Of a stretch of DNA of 64,000 nucleotides, positions 4,781 through 48,489 are shown piece by piece. The position numbers were made by a program, and so were the translations under genes. Every line of letters begins with the position of its first letter. Position 1 is the first letter of the stretch. The notes beneath the pieces are model-generated. The model did no database searches, was not told where the DNA came from, and saw only the letters and a program-made list of their open reading frames with translations. Origin of the DNA: Naegleria lovaniensis (lineage: Eukaryota; Heterolobosea; Eutetramitea; Acrasida; Naegleriidae); contig NW_025407840.1 in the NCBI RefSeq assembly GCF_003324165.1, forward strand, positions 604,385-668,384, read 5' to 3'.

Positions 4781-7402
4781 TTAAGGATTGTTTTGAGGAG
4801 ATGACTCTTCCAACGTTGGTGTTGGAGTGGAGGTAACACTATCACTTTCTTCATGAGTTTCGTTCGTGGCTGTTGAAGATTGCAGTTCCTCTTCCTTTTT
4901 GGTTATTGTGAGATTATCTCCTTCATGGTCTTCATGAATGATTGGATCCTCATTCGTTGTGTGGTGTGATGACTCTGGCACTACGATTTCTGGTTCTTTT
5001 GAATGAACTTGTGGATCCACAGATTCGGGTGAATGAATTTGAGAACTAATATCAGAATCTTCTTCCAAAATCAGCTTTCGTGCATGGGCGGAAGCCAATT
5101 CAAGATTTTGTTTTTCCAGCTCTTGGAATGAGAGAGTTAGTTCTTGAAGGGTGAGAGTCAAATTACTGTTCTGAGTAGTGAGTTGTTGTGTTGTCAATTG
5201 GCATTCCTGGAGATGGCTTGTAAGGTTGGAAATTTCTTGTACAAGGTTAGAATTTTCATCACTATTCTGTGAAAGTATCTTGTTCATTTCTGTCAATGTC
5301 TCGTTGAGCTTGAATTCCAATTGCTCTACATTGTTTTTACATATCTTTTCTTCTTCCACATGCTCAAGTTTGGTTTCAATGAGGATGGATGATAGTGTGG
5401 TCGATTTGTCTGAGCACTCTTTGAAGAGTTTTTCCAACTCTGTAACATTAGATGAACATTCTCCAACTCGTAAAATTAATTCTTGCTTTTCATTGCTCAA
5501 AAATTCAATTCGTTTCTCCAGAGAGGTTAGTTTAAGGATTAACTTTTCCACTTGTTTGTCTTGAATGATTTTTGTCCTTTCTTCACGACACAAGCTCAAG
5601 GCAGAAAAACATTCACGTTGCTCCAATTCCACATGATGCAACTTTTTGGTTAATTCTCTTGTTGTTTTCTGGCATTGTTGTTTCTTTTCCAATTGATCTA
5701 GGAACACTTTGAGTTGGCCTTTGATTTTTTCATTCTCTTCGTTGATGGTCTCATTAAACTGTCCCATGTAGTTAGAAATCTGCGCAATGTATTGAGCAGT
5801 TTGCTGTAATTGAGCCGAATGTTTCTGTATTTCTTCCTTTTCAGTCATTACTACACGCAATGTTGTTTGTTTCAAAGTTTCAATCTGCTCGAATTGTTCA
5901 GATTTCTCATGTTTTAGATGAGTAATCTCCTTTTGAAGACCTTCTATCAAATCTGCTTGCTTTTTGATTTCTTCTTGAAGAGCATTTTGCTGTGAGACTT
6001 TTCGTTGTTCTTCAATTTTTAAATCATTTTGCAACTTCGTAATTGTGTCTTCTTGCATTGTTTTCACAAGAAGCATTTCCTTGATTTGCTGATCTTTCTT
6101 TTCGATAATGCTGATGGTTGTGATATTTAGGGTTTGTAAATAATCTTCAAGCAGTGTCAAATTCTTTAGCAGTATTGAATTTGTAATTTTGTTAGATTCG
6201 ACAGTCTCGTTCAACGAGTGTACTTTCTCTTCAAGCTCTGAGATTTTCTCTTTGTGATTTGAAATTTTAACTTCCTTATCCAACAATTGTTTGTTCAATA
6301 AAGTAATTTCCTCATTCTTGGATAGAATCGTAATTTTCAATGATGATTCTGTCTCTAGAGCACTCGCCATTTGCATTTCATTTTGATGTTTCAGTTGTTC
6401 TATTTGCATGTTCAAGTTAGCAATGTCCTGTAATTGCTCCTCAATTTTGTTATTTGTAAGTCGATCGTTAGAGAGTTTGAGTAAAATATTCTTGCCTTGT
6501 GGTGTTATTGAATTGATTGTCTCCAATTTTTCACTGACTTTGAACAGAGAGTATAAATCGTTCGTAATCTCCTCTGATATTTGTGGATACTCTTTCAACA
6601 TATTGTGTGATTTTTTGATAAGGGAGCTCGATCGTGAGCAATGTGCCCTCAACTTGAGGCTCAAGTAAAAGTTGACACCTTTCTCCACACCAGGAATTGC
6701 ATAAGCTTTCGAAATTGAAATCAAAACTTCCCTCGCAATCAATACTTCCACCATGGTTTTGGCACAATAAGGTTCAGTATCTGAATTTGAGTTCACTTCA
6801 TCCTCAATTACGTTTTCTATTTTTTCAATGAGCTCACTGCTCATGAGAAACTGTTCTCTCTTACTTATCAACTCTTCTCTCGATTTCAATTGAATTCCCA
6901 AGCTCCACAATGGTATTGTATGATTGTTACCACACTTATCAGAGGTAGAGTTCGAATACTCGGCAGTGAGGTCCTGCACGATACGAGAAGCCTTTTGTTC
7001 ATGCTCCGTTTGAGATGCAGCATTGGATAATAAACTAGAGTAAAATTCCGAGGCATAGTTCAAAGCAATGATATGTTTCACGAGTTCTTGATGGCATTGG
7101 GTATTGTTATTGCTCAAGAATTTAGAGATGAGAAGGGATGTTGAATTGTTGGATGTTTTGCTTTCATTCATGGTTGGTGGATGATGATCGGGATTGGAGT
7201 TTTCCATCATCATCGGGAATGTAAAATTCTGTATGGCTCGTAAATAGAATTCCACTCGTTCATAGCCACGTTCATGAGAATGTTTCAAAAGAATTTGAAT
7301 CATTTCATTTGGTACTCGCTCAATAGGAACCCTGAATGCCAAATAGAAGGACAAAAAGGCGACCAACACAAATAAAACTCCACGAAGAAAAAGATTGCTG
7401 GG
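4781..7402 (-). pseudogene. Signal-anchor coiled-coil protein gene, start codon severed by a transposon
   Basis: A long open frame of about 870 codons. The N-terminus is hydrophobic (FVLVAFLSFYLAF), a signal peptide or type II anchor. A stretch with several N-x-S/T sequons follows, then a heptad-rich coiled coil from roughly residue 250 to 770, then an acidic Ser/Thr/Pro/Glu tail ending in NNP. No family was recognised. The frame has no in-frame ATG before the hydrophobic segment; it runs straight into the transposon inverted repeat at 7405. The missing ATG lies at 9826-9824, on the far side of the insertion, where removing the element with one TA restores an 875-residue protein. The next in-frame ATG (7303) lies after the hydrophobic segment, so initiation there would lose membrane targeting. 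The frame is otherwise undamaged, which suggests a recent insertion. Confidence 0.8.
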
Positions 7403-7404
7403 TA
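7403..7404. repeat. TA target-site duplication, left copy
   Basis: The TA dinucleotide directly abuts the left inverted repeat. The matching copy is at 9821-9822. Confidence 0.85.
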
Positions 7405-7438
7405 TTGTGATTTTCGAAAAAGTGCGAAAAAAAATCGA
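7405..7438 (+). repeat. Left terminal inverted repeat
   Basis: The first 22 bp are identical to the reverse complement of the right end. After that the repeat continues as an A8 run and TCGA, where the right end has AATAAAAAA and TCGA, a one-base length difference. Confidence 0.9.
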
Positions 7439-7536
7439 GTAAAATCGAAAACGACTTGCTCAAATTCGGTCAACCATCATTTTTTGGACGTTTCTTCCCG
7501 AAAACGATTTTGCTTGATGTTGACGAGATACGATGT

Positions 7537-7671
7537 TGATGCTATTCGTGCAAAGTCGAAAAAATCGATTACGATCGACCTGAATCGATTACCTCAACAC
7601 GATTCATTTCTCAACGTCGATGTTTTTCGTCCAAAATCGAAAAAATCAATTATGATCGACCTGAATCGATT
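7537..7671. repeat. Subterminal direct repeats, 54 bp with 81-bp spacing
   Basis: Positions 7537-7590 and 7618-7671 match at 47 of 54 positions by eye, including the shared core GATCGACCTGAATCGATT. A weaker third echo (AAAAAATCGAT) lies near 7691. Subterminal repeats of this kind are often transposase-binding sites in Tc1/mariner relatives; that role here is inference. Confidence 0.7.
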
Positions 7672-7713
7672 TTCTTGATCGTCAGAGTTGAAAAAATCGA
7701 TCATGAAGAACCT

Positions 7714-8378
7714 TTAATCAAATAAACTCTGATAATTTGCTTCTATTTGATTTTTCTCCTCTTCCTCTTTTTGTCTAATCTTCTCTTTCTTTACCTCAAT
7801 CAATTTTGCAACTTCATTCACCAATTTGGTCAAAGGTTTTACATACTGTTCCTCTTGTTTAGCAATATCTTCTTCTTGTTTTTTAAATCTCTCAAGTAAC
7901 TCCTCCTTTTCTTTCTGAATTTTCAATAATTGATCTGCAATAACTTTTGAATTATTTTCTTCCATGTCTTTCGATCTGAATGTTCTGATTCGCTGTCACT
8001 ACTGTCACCTTGAATTTGTGAAGCCAATGATTGTTTTTTGTTGGAGTGAGCAGAAATCTCTTTTTCAATCTCGTTAACAATCCATTTCTTGTTTTCTTGA
8101 ATGAAAGTATCAAAAAAATCTTTCACACGTTTGTCATCTTTTGGGGCGTTGCATGTTGCTGGTAAACCATCTTTGTATTTTCTTGAACCTTTAGCAGTAG
8201 GAAATGTGAAATTTGTATTTTTTTTTGTTTCTAATTGGAGCTTCTTGAAAACTTTGCTTGCTGCTTTTGAATTTGTCATTCCATGAGAATAGAGCTCATT
8301 TGAACAAATAGGTAATGTGGTTGCGAGTATTTCGCAAAAACGATCAAACGTGTTCCACTTTGTTTTGTCTTTGCCCAT
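7714..8378 (-). CDS. Transposon accessory protein, two overlapping frames (function unknown)
   Basis: Two minus-strand frames overlap. The upstream frame (8378-7923, 151 residues) starts at an ATG with MGKDKTKWNTFDRF and carries an acidic Ser/Asp patch (SDSESEHSD). The downstream frame (to 7714) holds a strongly charged coiled coil ending in NYQSLFD. They overlap over 7923-7965, and the upstream frame ends soon after the overlap starts. Joining them needs a one-base shift; no adequate GT-AG intron is present. So this is one protein with a frameshift (decay or sequence error), two proteins, or programmed shifting without a canonical slippery site. No family was recognised. The location inside the element, divergent from the transposase, suggests a role in transposition or regulation. 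Confidence 0.6.
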
Positions 8379-8594
8379 TTTTTTTCAGTGAGAAAACCGT
8401 TGTTATTGTTTTTTGACGTTGACACAATCGCACAAAAAACAAGACGCCGTTGAGTTTTTTTTATTCCAAAGCAAATCAACGTCGTTCAATTCAACATTTT
8501 CGATATGACAACATTAAACAATTCAACATAATCGAGCAGAATTGTTTTTCTCAACAATTTCTTATCAATTTTGCTCGAAAAAATCGATTTCCAC

Positions 8595-9665
8595 ATGGTA
8601 AAAGCAACGCAACATCGATTCACAAACGATGAAAGACGAGTTTTCAAACAAAAAACAGGTGTCCAAATATCTCAAAAACTAAGACCATATATCCAAGGTC
8701 AAAAATTAGCCCCAGAACAAATTGAGTTCATTAAATTGGTGTGTGGAAAGTATGGAGATAAACCAAAGGTCTTGCAACAAATTTTACCTTTCGCACCTTC
8801 AACGATTTACAAATATTGCAATGAAATACAAAAAGAAAAAGCTCTCGGAAGGCCTCCACATTCAGGTAAATCAACCCACCTCTCTGTGTTAAGATTTATT
8901 GATATCATATTCAGTGAATATAATACTGTTAATTATGCAGAAGTACGTCAAATAGTTAAAGATTATCTTGATGTTTCAATTTCCATATCTCAGCTCTCCA
9001 AAATAACGACAAAATATTTGTTCAGGACATATAAGAAATGTGAAAAAGTATCAGTATATCGAAAAAGCCCAAGAGTACAATCTCAAAGGACTGTGTACAG
9101 GCGAACTATTCGAACCTACAAAACAAGAATCATGTTTTTTATTGACGAATCGCATTTCTGTTATGACCATTTGATTAGAACAAGGGCTCACATCAAAATT
9201 GGCAACACTTGTCAAAACAGTGCGCACAGAGTGAGTGGAAAACGTTTTTCATTATTGGCATGCATTAACGAGAGAGGAGGTTTGGTTTACTGGGAACTTG
9301 TCGATACAACTAACAAAGCAATTGATGCTGATCGATTTAATATATTTCTGACAACATTGAGCAAATTGATCCCAAAAGATTGTATTTTAGTTCTTGACAA
9401 CGCATCCATTCATAAGGAAAAAGAAGTTCATAGAATAATGAATGGCCAAGGTATTAGTGTGTTTTGGCAAAGCCCATACTCTCCTGACTTCAATCCCATT
9501 GAATTGCTTTTCGGATGGATGAAAACACAGTTGAAAAACTATGAACATTCGGTTGACTCTCTCGAAGAGATAATGGAGCAGGTGTTTGATCAAGTTACAC
9601 CCAAGTTAATCAAATCGTTTGTTCATCATTGCAAGGAAATCTGGCATGATGAGACAAAAACTTAA
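8595..9665 (+). CDS. DD34E transposase (DDE superfamily, IS630/Tc1-like)
   Basis: Cuts and joins the element at its inverted repeats. The ATG at 8595 is the first in the frame and gives 356 residues. An N-terminal helix-rich part (about residues 30-150) resembles a paired helix-turn-helix DNA-binding region. The catalytic domain carries FFIDES (Asp about 184), LVLDNASIH (Asp about 268) and SPDFNPIELLFGWMK (Glu about 303). Exactly 34 residues separate the last two acids. The IELLFGWMK ending is usual for DDE_3-type enzymes. The frame is undisturbed, so the enzyme may be active. The stop at 9665 lies 155 bp inside the right end. Confidence 0.92.
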   Translation: MVKATQHRFTNDERRVFKQKTGVQISQKLRPYIQGQKLAPEQIEFIKLVCGKYGDKPKVLQQILPFAPSTIYKYCNEIQKEKALGRPPHSGKSTHLSVLRFIDIIFSEYNTVNYAEVRQIVKDYLDVSISISQLSKITTKYLFRTYKKCEKVSVYRKSPRVQSQRTVYRRTIRTYKTRIMFFIDESHFCYDHLIRTRAHIKIGNTCQNSAHRVSGKRFSLLACINERGGLVYWELVDTTNKAIDADRFNIFLTTLSKLIPKDCILVLDNASIHKEKEVHRIMNGQGISVFWQSPYSPDFNPIELLFGWMKTQLKNYEHSVDSLEEIMEQVFDQVTPKLIKSFVHHCKEIWHDETKT

Positions 9666-9785
9666 TAAATTTCGAGTTTGATCGAAATCGATTTTGAAGG
9701 ATTTCGATGTTAATCAACATCAAGTCAAAACGACAACGCATCAATGTCGCTCATTTCGATCTCGAAAAAAATCGCGAAAAAATCG

Positions 9786-9820
9786 TCGATTTTTTATTCG
9801 CACTTTTTCGAAAATCACAA
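9786..9820 (-). repeat. Right terminal inverted repeat
   Basis: Reverse complement of the left end. The outer 22 bp are identical and the inner part differs by a short A-run change. Confidence 0.9.
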
Positions 9821-9826
9821 TAACAT
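9821..9826 (-). other. Severed start codon of the interrupted coiled-coil gene plus TA duplication
   Basis: On the minus strand 9826-9821 reads ATGTTA. The ATG follows an A-run like other starts in this window. The TA of the second codon is the target duplication (9821-9822), and its partner TA at 7403-7404 continues directly into CCC-AGC of the host gene in the right frame. Confidence 0.85.
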
Positions 9827-10004
9827 TTTTTTTGATTCGTTCTGCAAAAAAAAAACATCCCAGTTGATTTCAAAGAATTCTATGAGACACAACATTGATT
9901 GGACGAAAGAGATTGTAATATATGAGGAGGACACGTTTAAAGTTTGTACCAAAGTGTAAGCTCATTCGATGCCCGAATGAATTTGGAAAAGTGTTACAAA
10001 AAAA
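9827..10004. promoter_or_regulatory. Shared divergent spacer: coiled-coil gene and TBC gene
   Basis: 178 bp between the original start of the minus-strand coiled-coil gene and the plus-strand TBC gene. Long A/T runs touch both starts. It was the promoter region of the interrupted gene and is now separated from its body. No defined box was identified. Confidence 0.45.
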
Positions 10005-11965
10005 ATGCGAAGATCATCCAATACGAATAGGGAAGGTCGTACCGTTGAGCAAGAAGAGAGACAACATCCAACCACTTCGGATTCCAACATGTTTTTAGAT
10101 TCATCCTTTGGATCATCGTCGCCTACAACAACATCACCATCACCGTCCACTCATTCAACATTTTCTAGTAATGTTGTTTCGGGAAATGTATATTCTAGAA
10201 ATTCAAAAACCGTTAAATTGGAACAAATGATTAAAGAGATTCAACAACATACATATTATAGAAGGCTACTGGATCAAGCGGAAAGGATGAATCGTAACGG
10301 ATCAACAACAGGAACATCATCGGAAATTTCATCCCACTCCATAAATGATGATCCAATTGGTGAAAATGAAGATGAAGATAAACAATCATTCACTCAGCTG
10401 CTACATAAATTGAGAAGACTTATTCTCTCGTCTCCCATCACACTCGGATCTGGAGATTATGAAACCAATCTTGGATGTATCAAAGACTCACTCCGTCAAT
10501 TTATTTGGCCTCTTCTATTGCATGACTCGGATCATTTATGTAGAGATAAAAGTTCAGTTTTTCATATCATCAAGAAAATTGACAAGCAACACGAACAATA
10601 TGAACAAGTAGAAAAGGATGTGGAGAGGTCAATGTTCAAATTTTTAGCTCCATTCTTTGGCAAATACAACAATCAAGTCATTTATGTGAATACTTCGAAT
10701 GCCAGCAGCAGCAGCAGTTTGAATGGAGGTGTCTCGAAACATACAGGATCAAAAACCATGAATCTTGAGCTGAGTTACAAGAGAAGAAATTTAAGCTTGG
10801 TCGTCAATTCAATCCTCCAACTGTACAAACGATTCCAAGATCAAGCTGAAAATTCCAATTTTTCAGAAGAAATTGTTCCACTCTACTATTTTCAAGGTTT
10901 TCACGAAATTTGTTCAGTTATGCTTTTGACATTCCAGGACAATTTAGAAACAACGTTTAGATGTTGCTATCGACTCGCAACCAACCATTTTTACGACTCT
11001 ATGCATTCTCCTAATTTAGATGAAGTCATCAGAAAATGTGCAATGATAATCACAATTTTGGAAGAGAGTGGTCATCATGACATTTGTGAAATTTTGAGAG
11101 ACAGTGGAATGGATCAGGGTCATTATGCACTGAGTTGGATTTTAACATGGTTTGCGCATGTTATTGAACAGGATTGTGGAGAGGACCATGAAGACTCGCC
11201 GTACAGCACGACGAATATTGCCTCTGAAAATTGTAGGTTTTTTTCTAATTTATGTAATTTTGGACCAAAGTTATCCATGAATTTTGTCCATGTGATGACT
11301 CGTATTAATTTTCAGTTACATCCACAGTCCCAAGCCTTTTCCTTGTACAAACGTTATTTGACGTATTTTTGGCTGTTGGAAACCCATTCTTTGTGGTGTA
11401 TGTTGCTGCAAGTGTAGTTATTGAGCGAAGAGAAGAATTATTAATTTTAAAAGAAGGAGGTTCTGCAACAACAGTTCGTCAAAAGTTAGCAGCCGTGTCT
11501 GGAGGAAGAACTGAAATTGATTTTCCATTCTCGGCAGATGAAGACGACGATGACATTAATTACATTGAATTTACTGTGATATTTGGCTTGTTAAATAGGT
11601 TTCCAAAGAATATTACTCCAAAATGGTTGGAACGAGTGGTGAAACGAGCGCTCAATCTTTGGAAGCATCATGATTACCGAAATTTGTGCTCTCCTGAAGA
11701 GTTCACCAATCCATTCCCATTTTCTTATTTATGTGAGTGTGAAGACTTTTCAAATTATCATGAATCGGTCGCTGATTATTGGAGAGATGAAGAAGAGGAA
11801 CGATTACTGCGTGAGGAAAAGGAGAGAGAGGAAGCAGAAAAGAGAAGAAAGGCTCAACAACAGCAATTATCAAAAGCATTCTTTTTGGGAGGTAGCATTG
11901 TGGTTGCTGCTGCTGCATTTTACTTTTCTGCTCAATCTTGGTTTTTTCATGCCACGTTCAAGTAA
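10005..11965 (+). CDS. TBC1D20-like Rab GTPase-activating protein, tail-anchored
   Basis: Stimulates GTP hydrolysis on a Rab; TBC1D20/Gyp8 relatives act on Rab1/Ypt1 at the ER-Golgi. Two exons: 10005-11232 and 11316-11965, joined by an 83-nt intron with donor GTAGGT and acceptor TTTCAG, giving 625 residues. Both catalytic fingers are visible: VEKDVER (IxxDxxR type, Arg about 208) and YYFQGFHEI (Gln about 297). ALSWILTWFAHV and, after the splice, LFDVFLAVGNPFFVVY match the TBC1D20 group. A charged coiled coil is followed by a hydrophobic segment (FFLGGSIVVAAAAFYFS) near the C-terminus, as in TBC1D20. The N-terminal 60 residues are Ser/Thr-rich and disordered. Confidence 0.85.
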
Positions 11966-13907: not shown

Positions 13908-16900
13908 ATGCCAAAAGCAAAAGCTGTATGTTGTTGTTGGTCTGTTGTTGTGTGAATTCATGTGAAAACTTTATAATGTCGTTGAATCATAACGATTGAA
14001 TTATGAAATCAATAATTTCAAAAAACATTGTTTTTAGGTCGAAAATAACAAGTACTCTGCTGGTTACGATTTCACTGCTGCCAAAGGAGATAAATTGACA
14101 CCATTGGCACGAATTTGGGTCGATCGAGACAAGAAACAAAGAAAACAAGCCAAACTGACTGGTGCTTCCTCTGCCACCGACAGTAAGGAAGAACAAGAAC
14201 TCGAGTCATTGTGCTTTTTGATTAGAGAACATTTTGATTTTGAGTTAAAATTCCACATTATTTGCATGCTTCCAACCTATACTGAGGTCAGCAACAGACG
14301 CGACTACCCTCACAAGAAATTGTTCAGCACTTACTTTGGTGGAGAGGAATCAACAGTCTACAGTATTAGGCGAGATCCTCTTTTGGTCACTTATCACAAA
14401 TATCGTCTCATTTCCAAGAGTTTTAATGTCAGAATGCAACATTATTTAATGTCATCACATAATGGTTGTGATGAATTGAACATGGCAAACATGTTTATGC
14501 ATTTGTACAATCAAAGAACAAATCAAATGGAAATAGAGGGAGATTTCAACTCCTTCATGTCAAAGATGGCTTATTTGTTGTGCTTTATCCACACCAAGAA
14601 GCTGTATTTGGCTAAAAAAGTTCTTGACTTTGAGCATACAAGCATTTATAATGAGTTCCCTAAGGTATTCAATTGCTTAAAGTCATGCTGGAATGAGCTG
14701 TATAGATTGAAAACTGATATGGATTTGGGTACCTTTGTATTGAATGGTTCCATTCCATACTACAGAATGAATTACTATCAAAGTTTAATAGATTCCGATA
14801 GTGAAGATGAAGAGGAAGATGGAAAGGAAACGAACAACAAGGAAGCTTCTACCACTGAGCAAGATACCGAGTCAGATGCAACAAGCAAAAAAGTTGAGCA
14901 TGACGAAAATCTATCTCAAGATGCCTTGAATGATGGCAGTCTCAGTGTGAATCTAAGAGAAGATGTTGGCGTCACTTCTGAAACTTTGGACCTCATTGAT
15001 GACGAAAGCAAGATGGCTGTTGCCAATAAGGGTCTCATGCAAGATGATGACATCACTACTGAACAAGATAATGGTTTTTTCGATGCAAAGGATAATGCGA
15101 CTGCAGATAATGAAGAGGATGAAGAAGTAACCGAGGAAACTCTCATGAACGAAATCGACACAAGAGCCACTTCGAACACCCTCTCCACCAATATTTCATT
15201 CAACAGATTATTTCTCAACTCTTCTCAAAAACAAGATTTGGAGTACCAGAGAATCCAAAAGCAAATGGCCAAGAAGTTCAACGGTTTACAAGTTGAAGGT
15301 AAGTTTAGTTTGAAAACCACACATATGTGTCTCATTCATGAATGTAGATGGAGAATTTAAAGTTGATTTTGAAAACAATGACTTGAAAGTACGTATCAAT
15401 ATCACCATTTTTGCTGATAACCAAATTGTGACAATGTTACCTATCATGATATTTTCTGCTCAATCGATAGGTCGTTAATCCAAGAGAATTGTACAACCAA
15501 TTTTTCCATAAGGCAGGAGATATACCAGCAGTGTATAGATACGAAACCTACTCATCATTGAGCACTTTCTATCAAACCATTGCTCCAATTTATTCGTATG
15601 AGACATACTTGTGTGCTCTTTTGAGACTCAAATTACGCACAATACTTCCAGCCTTATTCAATAGCGATTTTTATGCTGACAACTATCAAATCTTCCGTTC
15701 TTTGACTTTAGTGAACTTGACTTATTGCAATTCTTTCAACAACTTGTTACTTCATATTTTACTTGAAAATGGAAAGGAAGTACCAAAAGATGTCACTATC
15801 AAAGAGAATGCTACATTTACCTCAACATGTGGAATTCAAGAGTTGTCTTTTGTTAACTTTACGTTTGACCAATTGTTAGTTATTTTCAGCAATGATCGTT
15901 CCTACTACCCCTCATCGGTAAGTATTCGATTTGTCATGATTGTTTACCTTATCGTATACTTGAAATTCATAATGGAAAATCATGTAGAGCAATTATGATT
16001 CTCCAACAAAAGATCCATGTGCCCTTAAAGGCTTGAATATTTTCGCCAAAATGGATGAAGCAAAGAAAAACTATATTTTCTCTTCTCTTGGAAACACTGT
16101 TTCTCGTGTGAATTTATACTTTTATGGTGATTACATTTACACACTTTCTCCAGAGACATTCTTATTCTCCAATTTCACACCTAACGTAACCGATCTCAGA
16201 ATCTCTGCAAAGACCAGAGAAAACAGCACTGTTGGTGCTCAAGTGAACACTGTATGCAATTCGTGTGTGGGTGAATTTAGTGCCGAATATTTCCAGAAAC
16301 GTTTCAAAAAAATCATCATGTTGGCAGAAGGAAAGCCTCAAAAAGAAGTGAATTGGAAAGCTGGTAATGACGTTTCTTATCAACAAGATGAGGAAGGAGG
16401 TTTGAATAATGTCCTATTCAATCCAAAACTTCCTGTAGTTGAGGAAGACGCTGTGCCTTCTAGCTCACCAACTCTCACTCTCAGAATCATGTTGATGTGT
16501 CAAATGACCAAGGATCTTTTGAATACATTCCTTGAACATTCGGGATTGATTTTCGAAAAGTTGCCAATATCCAACTTCCTTCTTACTCAATCCAACGGTT
16601 TCCCAATTGCTCAAAAGAAGGCCTTTATCGACACATTATTGAATGATCGCAAGCTTCCATTGAATGCCATTGATACGTTTTCCTATGATTTCACTGAAGA
16701 GAAACGTATCCTTGAAGAGTATTTGGTTTACCTTGCCAACAGCAACGATGGCCGTTTGTTAGGTCTAGAAAATATCTCTGGTGATTCCACATTTACTTGG
16801 TTGATGACCTTAATGTATTATGGATGGGATTTCTTGAAGGATAATAGAGTATTCGAAGAATTAATGTTGGGTGCTCAATTGAGTTGTGGTCGGCTCGGAA

Positions 16901-46309: not shown

Positions 46310-48489
46310 ATGGGACAAGTCATCACAACACAATTTCAACAAGCATGCGATGAAGACAATGTCGAAGCCTGTCGGAATTTACTCCTTACCAACGAAGGAA
46401 GAGAATTGTTTAAATATGAATTTGAAAATGTAAGATTCTATGCGCATATATATGAACAACGATAAACCCTAATAACGCACATCGTTATACTCTGACAGTC
46501 AAGGACGTTATTAATGGTTGCAGTTCGGAGTGGAGCCACTAAAATCGTTCGAATGTTATTCACGGATTTCCGAGACCGAACCGTTTCCATGATCGATCAT
46601 GTAGATGTATGTTGTAGTTTTAATGTACGAATTTTCGAAAGAATGTGAAAAAATGTTTTGTTATGCCAACAGTGGGCCAAATATGTGAGTTTTCAATTTT
46701 GAAAAGTATTTAAGATCCATGTAATATTGCAATTCACTACTTGATTTTGAATATTCACAAAGACTGCGTTGCATTGGGCATGTTGGATTGATCATGTAGA
46801 AATTGTGAAAATTCTAATTGAAAATGGAGCCAACGATCAGATGGTCAATGTGAGTAGTGTTATGAATTTTCGCACATGAAATGAATGTTGAAAAATGATA
46901 TAGGAAGAAGGAAAACGAGCTATCGATATGTGTAATTATGGTAAAAAAACTGGAGAAACATTTGATTACCTTAATTCCATGAAACCTTCTTTTTTAGAGT
47001 TGTAAGTGTGATGAGTCGCTAGTTCTGTGGATTTCTAAAATAACGTTAAATTCAAACGTATTGCTTGAACAATGAATGGTCGCTAGTATGAAGAAAGCCC
47101 TACAACCGACAAAATACAATCATTCAAGTTATAAACCTGGAGAGAAAAATGAAGATTATACCATGAAAGACTTGGACGATGGGTGTGTATCAGAATTTTT
47201 TCAAATTTTCTGCTTACCACTTGTTTCAATGACAATGAATGTTCAACACACAGATTTGTGGAAATTGAAAAATTAGATTATTCAGAAATCTCTTCAACAG
47301 ACATTGGTAAAAAAAATCCGCAACAAGGAGTGGCACTTTCATCTTTTGGAACACAACAACATCCCATGTTCTCAACCCTTACCAAGCAACAAATGTTTCG
47401 AAACATTACACAAAGTTTTCGAGGTGGAGAATCATTAGTGAATCAACAACAAGACTCTGAATTTCATCCATTAGAAAATTTATCCTCTCGACTACGATGT
47501 ACTTCACTCGATAGTATTGAATTGGGAAATTTTGTTGGAAAAGGAGGAGAGGGAAGAGTTTATTCTGGACGATGGAAAAAGTCGCAAGTGGCCATTAAGG
47601 TCATTTCACATCCATACATGACAAGAACACTCGCAAATCATCTCGATCTCATTATGAATATTTCGAATAGTTATTGCATTCCACATCATGCCTATGCTTA
47701 TGACTCGGAAAATTCAAAACTGTATATAGTCATGGAAAAGATGGATTGCAGTTTGTGGGAATTTTTGATTGAAAATAAGAAGCATTTGAGTGTAAGAGAA
47801 AAGGTTGAGATTTTGTTATGTATTTCGAAAGGAATGTTTTATTTGCATGACATGAAACCTCCTATTTTACATTTGGATTTAAAGTTGGAAAATATTTTAA
47901 TGAATATTGGCCAGAATGGAAAACCAAGTCATGTGAAATTAACAGATTTTGGACTTGCTCAATTTAAAACTACGGATTTATTGGTGCTGGATTGTCCATT
48001 GGGAACGTTACGTGCCATTAGTCCTGAAATTTTACGAAGTGGAGAATGCTCTGAAAAGTGTGACGTGTATTCATTTGGTAGGTCATTGTTGAAACTCAAA
48101 GTAATTGGGTTACTTTTTTAACTCAACCCTTGATTTGGATGGTATCTTTTTTGAACAATATTTACACATCATTTCTTATGATCCAATCAACACAAACTCG
48201 AATTTATGATAATATAGGAATTCTCATGTATGAGTTGTTATTTTCCAAAGTTGCGTATGTGGAAGAGGAGGATACTAACGACGGCAATGAAATGATATTA
48301 ATGGCTGTTGCCAACCAAAACAAGAGACCTACAATTCCGCTCGTTCGTGACTTGTATTGTGACAATGAGCAAGAACTATCCATATTTGACAAATTATTGA
48401 GATTGATGCAAGATTGTTGGGCTGGATCGGCGAGTGAGAGACCAAATTTTGATAACATTATCTCAACTCTGGAGAAATTGTTGCTTTAA
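46310..48489 (+). CDS. Ankyrin-repeat TKL-type protein kinase, eight exons with a 12-nt microexon
   Basis: Exons: 46310-46429, 46499-46606, 46673-46684, 46763-46849, 46904-47001, 47087-47182, 47254-48077 and 48218-48489; 538 residues, all phases consistent. Ankyrin repeats occupy residues 1 to about 145: ACDEDNVEACRNLL, then TLLMVAVRSGATKIVRML, then TALHWACWIDHVEIVKILIE. The 12-nt exon adds WAKY and places the D-x-x-x-x-TALHWA motif in correct register. The kinase domain (about 250-535) has GKGGEGRVYSG, VAIKV, HLDLKLENI, DFGLA, SPEILRSGE and DVYSFG. The HRD arginine is replaced by Leu, so it is a non-RD kinase but keeps the catalytic Asp, Lys and DFG. The last exon begins inside the FGILMYELL helix. 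Confidence 0.82.

What the first reader, a model, noticed from the sequence alone, without database searches (positions are those of the whole stretch)
7403..9826. Transposon sits in codon 2 of a large coiled-coil gene and removes its start codon
Seen directly: the minus strand reads ATG-T at 9826-9823, then TA/transposon/TA, then CCC-AGC in frame with an 870-codon frame. Taking out 7405-9820 with one TA restores ATG-TTA-CCC-AGC and a hydrophobic N-terminus. The host frame is otherwise undamaged, so the insertion looks recent, perhaps polymorphic. The next in-frame ATG lies beyond the signal anchor.
Basis: seen in the sequence. Interest (0 to 1): 0.85.

Follow-up and report, generated by a model that had tools for sequence, protein, structure and literature searches.

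The report
Transposon splits gene from start codon
A cut-and-paste transposon of a common type sits right behind the start codon of a large, probably membrane-bound protein gene in what looks like an amoeba genome, so this copy of the gene probably cannot make its normal protein; it is a neat case of an ordinary kind of event.

Summary
A 2416-bp element (7405-9820) lies between two TA copies, has near-identical inverted ends of about 34 bp, and carries an intact 356-aa transposase that passes the IS630 family cut-off and has a D,D34E catalytic triad. It splits codon 2 (TTA) of a minus-strand gene: ATG at 9826 on one side, an open 873-codon frame from 7402 on the other. New support that 9826 was the start: 6 of 2843 ATGs in the window follow seven A's; five open frames of 151-1431 aa, and the sixth is 9826, which now opens three codons. 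The element's end holds no in-frame ATG; the next, at 7303, lies past the hydrophobic stretch. The only splice routes found that could supply a start are weak. So this allele most likely lacks the full-length anchored product. 'Recent, perhaps polymorphic' could not be tested: no genome is held and no relative of the host gene was found. The element's second, divergent gene changes frame by one base, so this copy may not be pristine. The organism is not confirmed. Kind of event: ordinary.

The parts
7405..9820 (.). IS630/Tc1/mariner-type transposon, 2416 bp
   Evidence: TA on both sides, inverted ends, transposase
7403..7404 (.). TA target copy, left
   Evidence: Read directly
9821..9822 (.). 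TA target copy, right
   Evidence: Read directly
7405..7438 (+). Left inverted end
   Evidence: 97.3% over 37 columns including TA; only two sites in the window
9786..9820 (-). Right inverted end
   Evidence: 97.3% over 37 columns including TA
8595..9665 (+). Transposase, 356 aa, D184-D268-E303
   Evidence: Pfam DDE_3 96 bits, cut-off 28.6; NCBIfam transpos_IS630 122.3 bits, cut-off 100; triad invariant in six sequences
7714..8378 (-). Second gene of the element, function unknown; coding signal passes from the frame 8378-7923 to the frame 7995-7714
   Evidence: Open frames, codon scores, seven-A start context; no family above a curated cut-off
9824..9826 (-). Stranded start codon of the host gene
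   Evidence: Seven-A context shared by 6 of 2843 ATGs; in frame with the host frame at the empty site
4781..7402 (-). Rest of the host gene: 873 codons plus stop, hydrophobic N-terminus, coiled-coil-like body
   Evidence: Open frame, hydropathy; no Pfam family above cut-off
7322..7393 (-). Hydrophobic stretch, probable signal anchor
   Evidence: Kyte-Doolittle 19-residue windows up to 2.27
7301..7303 (-). Next in-frame ATG of the host frame
   Evidence: five A's of seven upstream; preceded by an overlapping ATG-AAA-TGA (read by eye)
9827..10004 (.). 178-base spacer to the divergent TBC-domain gene that starts at 10005; holds the host gene's presumed promoter
   Evidence: promoter role inferred

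Best explanation
A cut-and-paste DNA transposon of the IS630/Tc1/mariner group inserted at the TA inside codon 2 (TTA) of a host gene, with the TA doubled as this group does. The presumed promoter and the ATG now lie on one side and run into a stop codon after three codons, inside the element's end; the other 873 codons lie on the far side without a start. Shown from sequence: the element, the doubled TA, the open host frame, the start-codon context, and the lack of an in-frame ATG in the element's end. Inferred: the transposition event, and that this allele gives no full-length membrane-anchored protein, at most a shortened one from the ATG at 7303.
For: TA copies and inverted ends; transposase above the curated cut-offs of DDE_3 and transpos_IS630; triad D184, D268, E303 with 34 residues between the last two; 9826 is one of 6 of 2843 ATGs behind seven A's, the other five opening frames of 496, 470, 1431, 292 and 151 aa, with 0.89 such sites expected and at most 4 in 100 simulated sequences; 0 of 314 internal in-frame ATGs have six or more A's; ATG in frame with the 873 codons at the empty site; codon score of the host frame -0.125 inside the element end against 0.21 for the host frame as a whole.
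Against: No empty allele, orthologue or transcript was seen. Codon scores near the junction are weak (0.056 for the first 20 host codons, -0.019 for codons 41-60), so they do not mark the edge sharply. Only 4 of the 33 first ATGs listed for frames of 180 aa or more have seven A's, so the context is telling when present but is not the rule. A T-run followed by GCAG lies just upstream of the ATG and resembles a splice acceptor, which would allow an upstream exon, although neither GTA(A/T)G donor found between 10004 and 7300 lies in the spacer.
Confidence: 0.87

Rival explanations
1. The allele is not null: transcripts that start in the element, or read through it, are translated from the ATG at 7303 and give a shortened protein of 840 aa without the hydrophobic anchor.
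For: The frame from 7303 is open for 840 codons.
Against: That ATG has a weaker context (five A's of seven) and an overlapping ATG-AAA-TGA just before it (by eye). No promoter in the element's left end was tested for.
Confidence: 0.12
2. Splicing from the element supplies a start: the second gene, read from an ATG at 7965, is joined from a donor at 7846 to an acceptor whose first exon base is 7397 and continues in the host frame.
For: Donor GTATGT at 7846 and acceptor CCCAG before 7397; the frame upstream of the donor that joins the host frame is open for 49 codons and holds an ATG. A second donor-like site (GTATGG at 9479) also joins in frame, with 19 open codons and an ATG at 9499.
Against: 7846 is preceded by A, whereas 10 of 10 GTA(A/T)GT donors among the 12 candidate donors are preceded by G; it lies inside a stretch with coding signal. 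The implied introns (449 and 2082 bases) are long beside the published 80-bp median for N. lovaniensis (passage of PMC6125883). Looser donor-like sites listed were not tested.
Confidence: 0.03
3. The insertion is old or fixed and the host gene is a decaying pseudogene.
For: The element's second gene has a one-base change of frame, so it has had time to take damage, unless the change is functional or a read error.
Against: Host frame open over 873 codons, transposase intact, ends differing by one base length only.
Confidence: 0.12
4. Assembly artefact: the element was joined here by mistake.
For: None beyond the fact that reads were not available.
Against: Both junctions carry the expected TA, and the two flanks form one frame with a start codon; a random misjoin would hardly give this.
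Confidence: 0.02

Closest known systems
IS630/Tc1/mariner DNA transposons (NCBIfam NF033545 transpos_IS630; Pfam PF13358 DDE_3)
   Same: TA target copies, short inverted ends, D,D34E transposase above both curated cut-offs
   Different: Carries a second gene on the other strand with no known family; the simple members that I recall, and those described in the passages read of PMC9977792, carry a single transposase frame. Copy number unknown.
Sleeping Beauty transposase (PDB 5cr4)
   Same: Weak match over residues 163-337, with the second D and the E aligned (E 0.043)
   Different: The match is below the usual threshold; the transposase passes a bacterial-type IS630 model instead
Gene-disrupting transposon insertions in general (recalled, no call)
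   Same: Separates the start of a gene from the rest of its frame
   Different: The position, inside codon 2, is unusually exact; the mechanism is ordinary

Membership tests
IS630/Tc1/mariner transposon | Insertion at TA with TA doubled | tested here: met
   TA at 7403-7404 and 9821-9822
IS630/Tc1/mariner transposon | Terminal inverted repeats | tested here: met
   About 34 bp, one base length difference
IS630/Tc1/mariner transposon | Transposase of the family with a D,D,E/D triad at about 34 spacing | tested here: met
   NF033545 122.3 bits against cut-off 100; D184, D268, E303 invariant in the alignment with five plasmid proteins; 34 residues between D268 and E303
IS630/Tc1/mariner transposon | N-terminal helix-turn-helix DNA-binding domain | tested here: inconclusive
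   No Pfam HTH match up to E 1; the IS630 model does match from residue 53 on; fold model too poor, mean pLDDT 39.5
IS630/Tc1/mariner transposon | Several copies in the genome | not testable with these tools
   No genome held; no second copy in the window
True start codon at 9826 | Start context of the window's genes | tested here: met
   Seven A's, as in 6 of 2843 ATGs, the other five opening long frames
True start codon at 9826 | Orthologues start at the same place | not testable with these tools
   No relative of the host protein confirmed in viral or prokaryote contigs; no eukaryote genomes held
Window from Naegleria | G+C and gene structure as published | tested here: inconclusive
   G+C 36.9%, against 36.9-37% for N. 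fowleri and N. lovaniensis and 35% for N. gruberi (passages of PMC6831594 and PMC6125883); short intron-like gaps. Fits, but identifies no species

The most novel reading that the evidence does not exclude
The insertion does not silence the gene but re-addresses its product: either a protein started at 7303 that has lost its membrane anchor, or a fusion in which the transposon's second gene supplies the first exon. A mobile element would then have turned an anchored coiled-coil protein into a soluble or chimeric one in a single step.
Probability: 0.12. Interest if true: 0.5.

Novelty: new member of a known kind. Interest (0 to 1): 0.28.

Why it matters
It is a clean natural allele, probably null, of an uncharacterised coiled-coil gene, with a marker (the element) that a simple PCR can follow across strains. 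It also shows an intact IS630-like transposase, next to an unfamiliar second gene, in what appears to be an amoeba genome. If the site proves polymorphic, it would point to present-day transposition in that species.

Tried and rejected
Other copies of the element: no genome is held for the window. Relatives of the transposase: none confirmed among 37 pattern matches in viral contigs and 20 in prokaryote contigs. Element-end pattern in viral contigs: 0. Host protein: none confirmed among 3 matches in viral contigs and 15 in prokaryote contigs; first part of the second gene: none among 12 in viral contigs. Fold models of the transposase and of the first part of the second gene were too poor to use (mean pLDDT 39.5 and 50.1), so no fold search was made. 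Solved-structure searches with two neighbouring genes, meant to hint at the organism, listed malic enzymes and RidA/YjgF-type proteins and settled no species.

Papers. Searches: Naegleria with transposon and mariner (11 papers hold the terms, 11 listed), with transposable elements and genome (60, 30 listed), with Tc1 (11, 11), with transposase (39, 25), with start codon and Kozak (4, 4); two of IS630-Tc1-mariner, protist, DD34E (35, 15). No listing title or abstract start that I saw describes this element or insertion. Only passages of four papers were seen (PMC6125883, PMC6831594, PMC11043551, PMC9977792), none was read whole, so this is no proof that it is not in print.

Rejected: that the open frame running 19 codons into the element's end is coding (score -0.125; no ATG). 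Weak hits not followed: host protein to Pox_A12 (21.5 bits, cut-off 25) and second part of the second gene to RacA (23.9 bits, cut-off 262), both taken as coiled-coil noise. A 23-base likeness to the element end at 46631-46653 and one at 16547-16569 (87%, E 0.45) were taken as chance. Flaws of my own: the third frame column repeats the first by a slip and was not used; the label 'outside first 60' in fact means windows starting after residue 41; one search lists 21 candidate joins at 12 donors that no transcript supports.

Full report
Observation. The element lies at 7405-9820 between TA at 7403-7404 and TA at 9821-9822. Its ends are inverted repeats: 24 bases identical, one extra base in an A/T run, then 9 identical; blastn counts 97.3% over 37 columns including the TA. 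A 23-base piece of the end occurs at these two places only, with up to 3 mismatches, and the largest count in 100 shuffles was 0. A scan for TA-flanked, exactly matching 13-base inverted pairs 60-6000 bases apart found this pair alone in 64 kb.

The element. The plus strand holds a 356-aa transposase at 8595-9665. It matches Pfam DDE_3 (96 bits, cut-off 28.6) and NCBIfam transpos_IS630 (122.3 bits, cut-off 100). tblastn found 626 plasmid records with a match; I aligned five taken from the 20 listed, 20-28% identical, and D184, D268 and E303 are invariant, with 34 residues between the last two. The best solved structure by sequence is Sleeping Beauty transposase, weakly (E 0.043). The minus strand holds a second gene that starts at 8378, also behind seven A's. 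Its codon score is positive in one frame in each 60-base block from 8378 to 7959 and then in another from 7958 to 7719; the two open frames overlap at 7926-7995. Neither of the two GTA(A/T)G donors found between 10004 and 7300 lies in the first part, so damage, frameshifting or a read error is likelier than an intron. It matches no family above a curated cut-off. The left end also holds two 56-bp repeats, 88% alike.

The host gene. The minus-strand frame 7402-4784 has 873 codons and no Pfam family above cut-off. Its most hydrophobic stretch begins 4 residues after the junction. The rest is rich in charged and leucine residues and reads as coiled coil (by eye; no predictor was run), with 17 N-glycosylation sequons. 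A membrane-anchored protein of the secretory pathway is an inference. In the other direction a gene with a TBC (Rab-GAP) domain starts at 10005, so the two starts share a 178-base spacer.

Was 9826 the start? Of 2843 ATGs on both strands, 28 have six or seven A's in the seven bases before them and six have seven: 899, 10005 and 18204 on plus, 37630, 8378 and 9826 on minus. Five of these open frames of 496, 470, 1431, 292 and 151 aa; 9826 opens three codons. Among 314 internal in-frame ATGs of the long frames, none has six or seven A's. A first-order Markov model of the window gives 0.89 such sites on average and at most 4 in 100 runs. The context is not the rule: 4 of the 33 first ATGs listed for frames of 180 aa or more have it, though some of those frames are spurious or later exons. 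With one TA and no element the ATG is in frame with the 873 codons, which chance would give one time in three.

Consequence. A transcript from the spacer would read ATG-TTA-TTG-TGA and go on antisense to the transposase. In the host frame the element's end is open for 19 codons from 7459 and holds no ATG, CTG, GTG, TTG or ACG; it does hold ATT, ATC and ATA. The next in-frame ATG is at 7303, past the hydrophobic stretch, with five A's of seven, and an overlapping ATG-AAA-TGA lies just before it (by eye). Two donor-like GTA(A/T)G sites exist on the minus strand of the element, 9479 and 7846; both could be joined to an acceptor before 7397 so that an ATG comes into the host frame. The better one, 7846, follows an A, whereas 10 of 10 GTA(A/T)GT donors among the 12 candidate donors of the window follow a G, and it lies within coding signal. 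GTA(A/T)GT occurs 54 times on both strands, 22 times after a G, so the hexamer alone means little. I judge that the allele lacks the full-length anchored product.

Age and spread. Near-identical ends, an intact transposase and an open host frame fit a young insertion. The frame change in the second gene keeps this from being certain. No empty site could be sought, because no genome is held and the collections scanned held no confirmed relative of the host gene. Whether the site is polymorphic cannot be told here.

Organism. G+C is 36.9%, as reported for N. fowleri and N. lovaniensis; the same papers give DNA elements as 1.12% of the N. fowleri genome and, for N. lovaniensis, DNA transposons as 1.25% and introns with a median of 80 bp (passages of PMC6831594 and PMC6125883).

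Verdict. As a phenomenon it is an ordinary insertion of a known kind of transposon in an unusually exact place; the second gene of the element is its least familiar part.

Noticed in passing
7714-8378, minus strand: Second gene of the transposon, divergent from the transposase, with no known family; its coding signal passes from one frame to another in the overlap 7926-7995.
   Followed up: partly
899, 10005, 18204 (+); 37630, 8378, 9826 (-): ATGs behind seven A's are rare (6 of 2843) and five of the six open long frames: a useful start signal for gene calling in this genome.
   Followed up: yes
7535-7590 and 7616-7671, with a related piece at 7683-7713: Repeats (56 bp, 88% alike) just inside the left end of the element, possibly transposase-binding sites.
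   Followed up: no
9840-9860, minus strand: T-run followed by GCAG just upstream of the stranded ATG resembles a splice acceptor; neither GTA(A/T)G donor found lies in the spacer.
   Followed up: partly
9827-10004: Short 178-base spacer between two divergent genes, presumably a shared promoter; the transposase also reads towards the TBC-domain gene at 10005.
   Followed up: no
46631-46653 and 16547-16569: Short stretches 87% like the element's ends over 23 bases (E 0.45); probably chance.
   Followed up: partly
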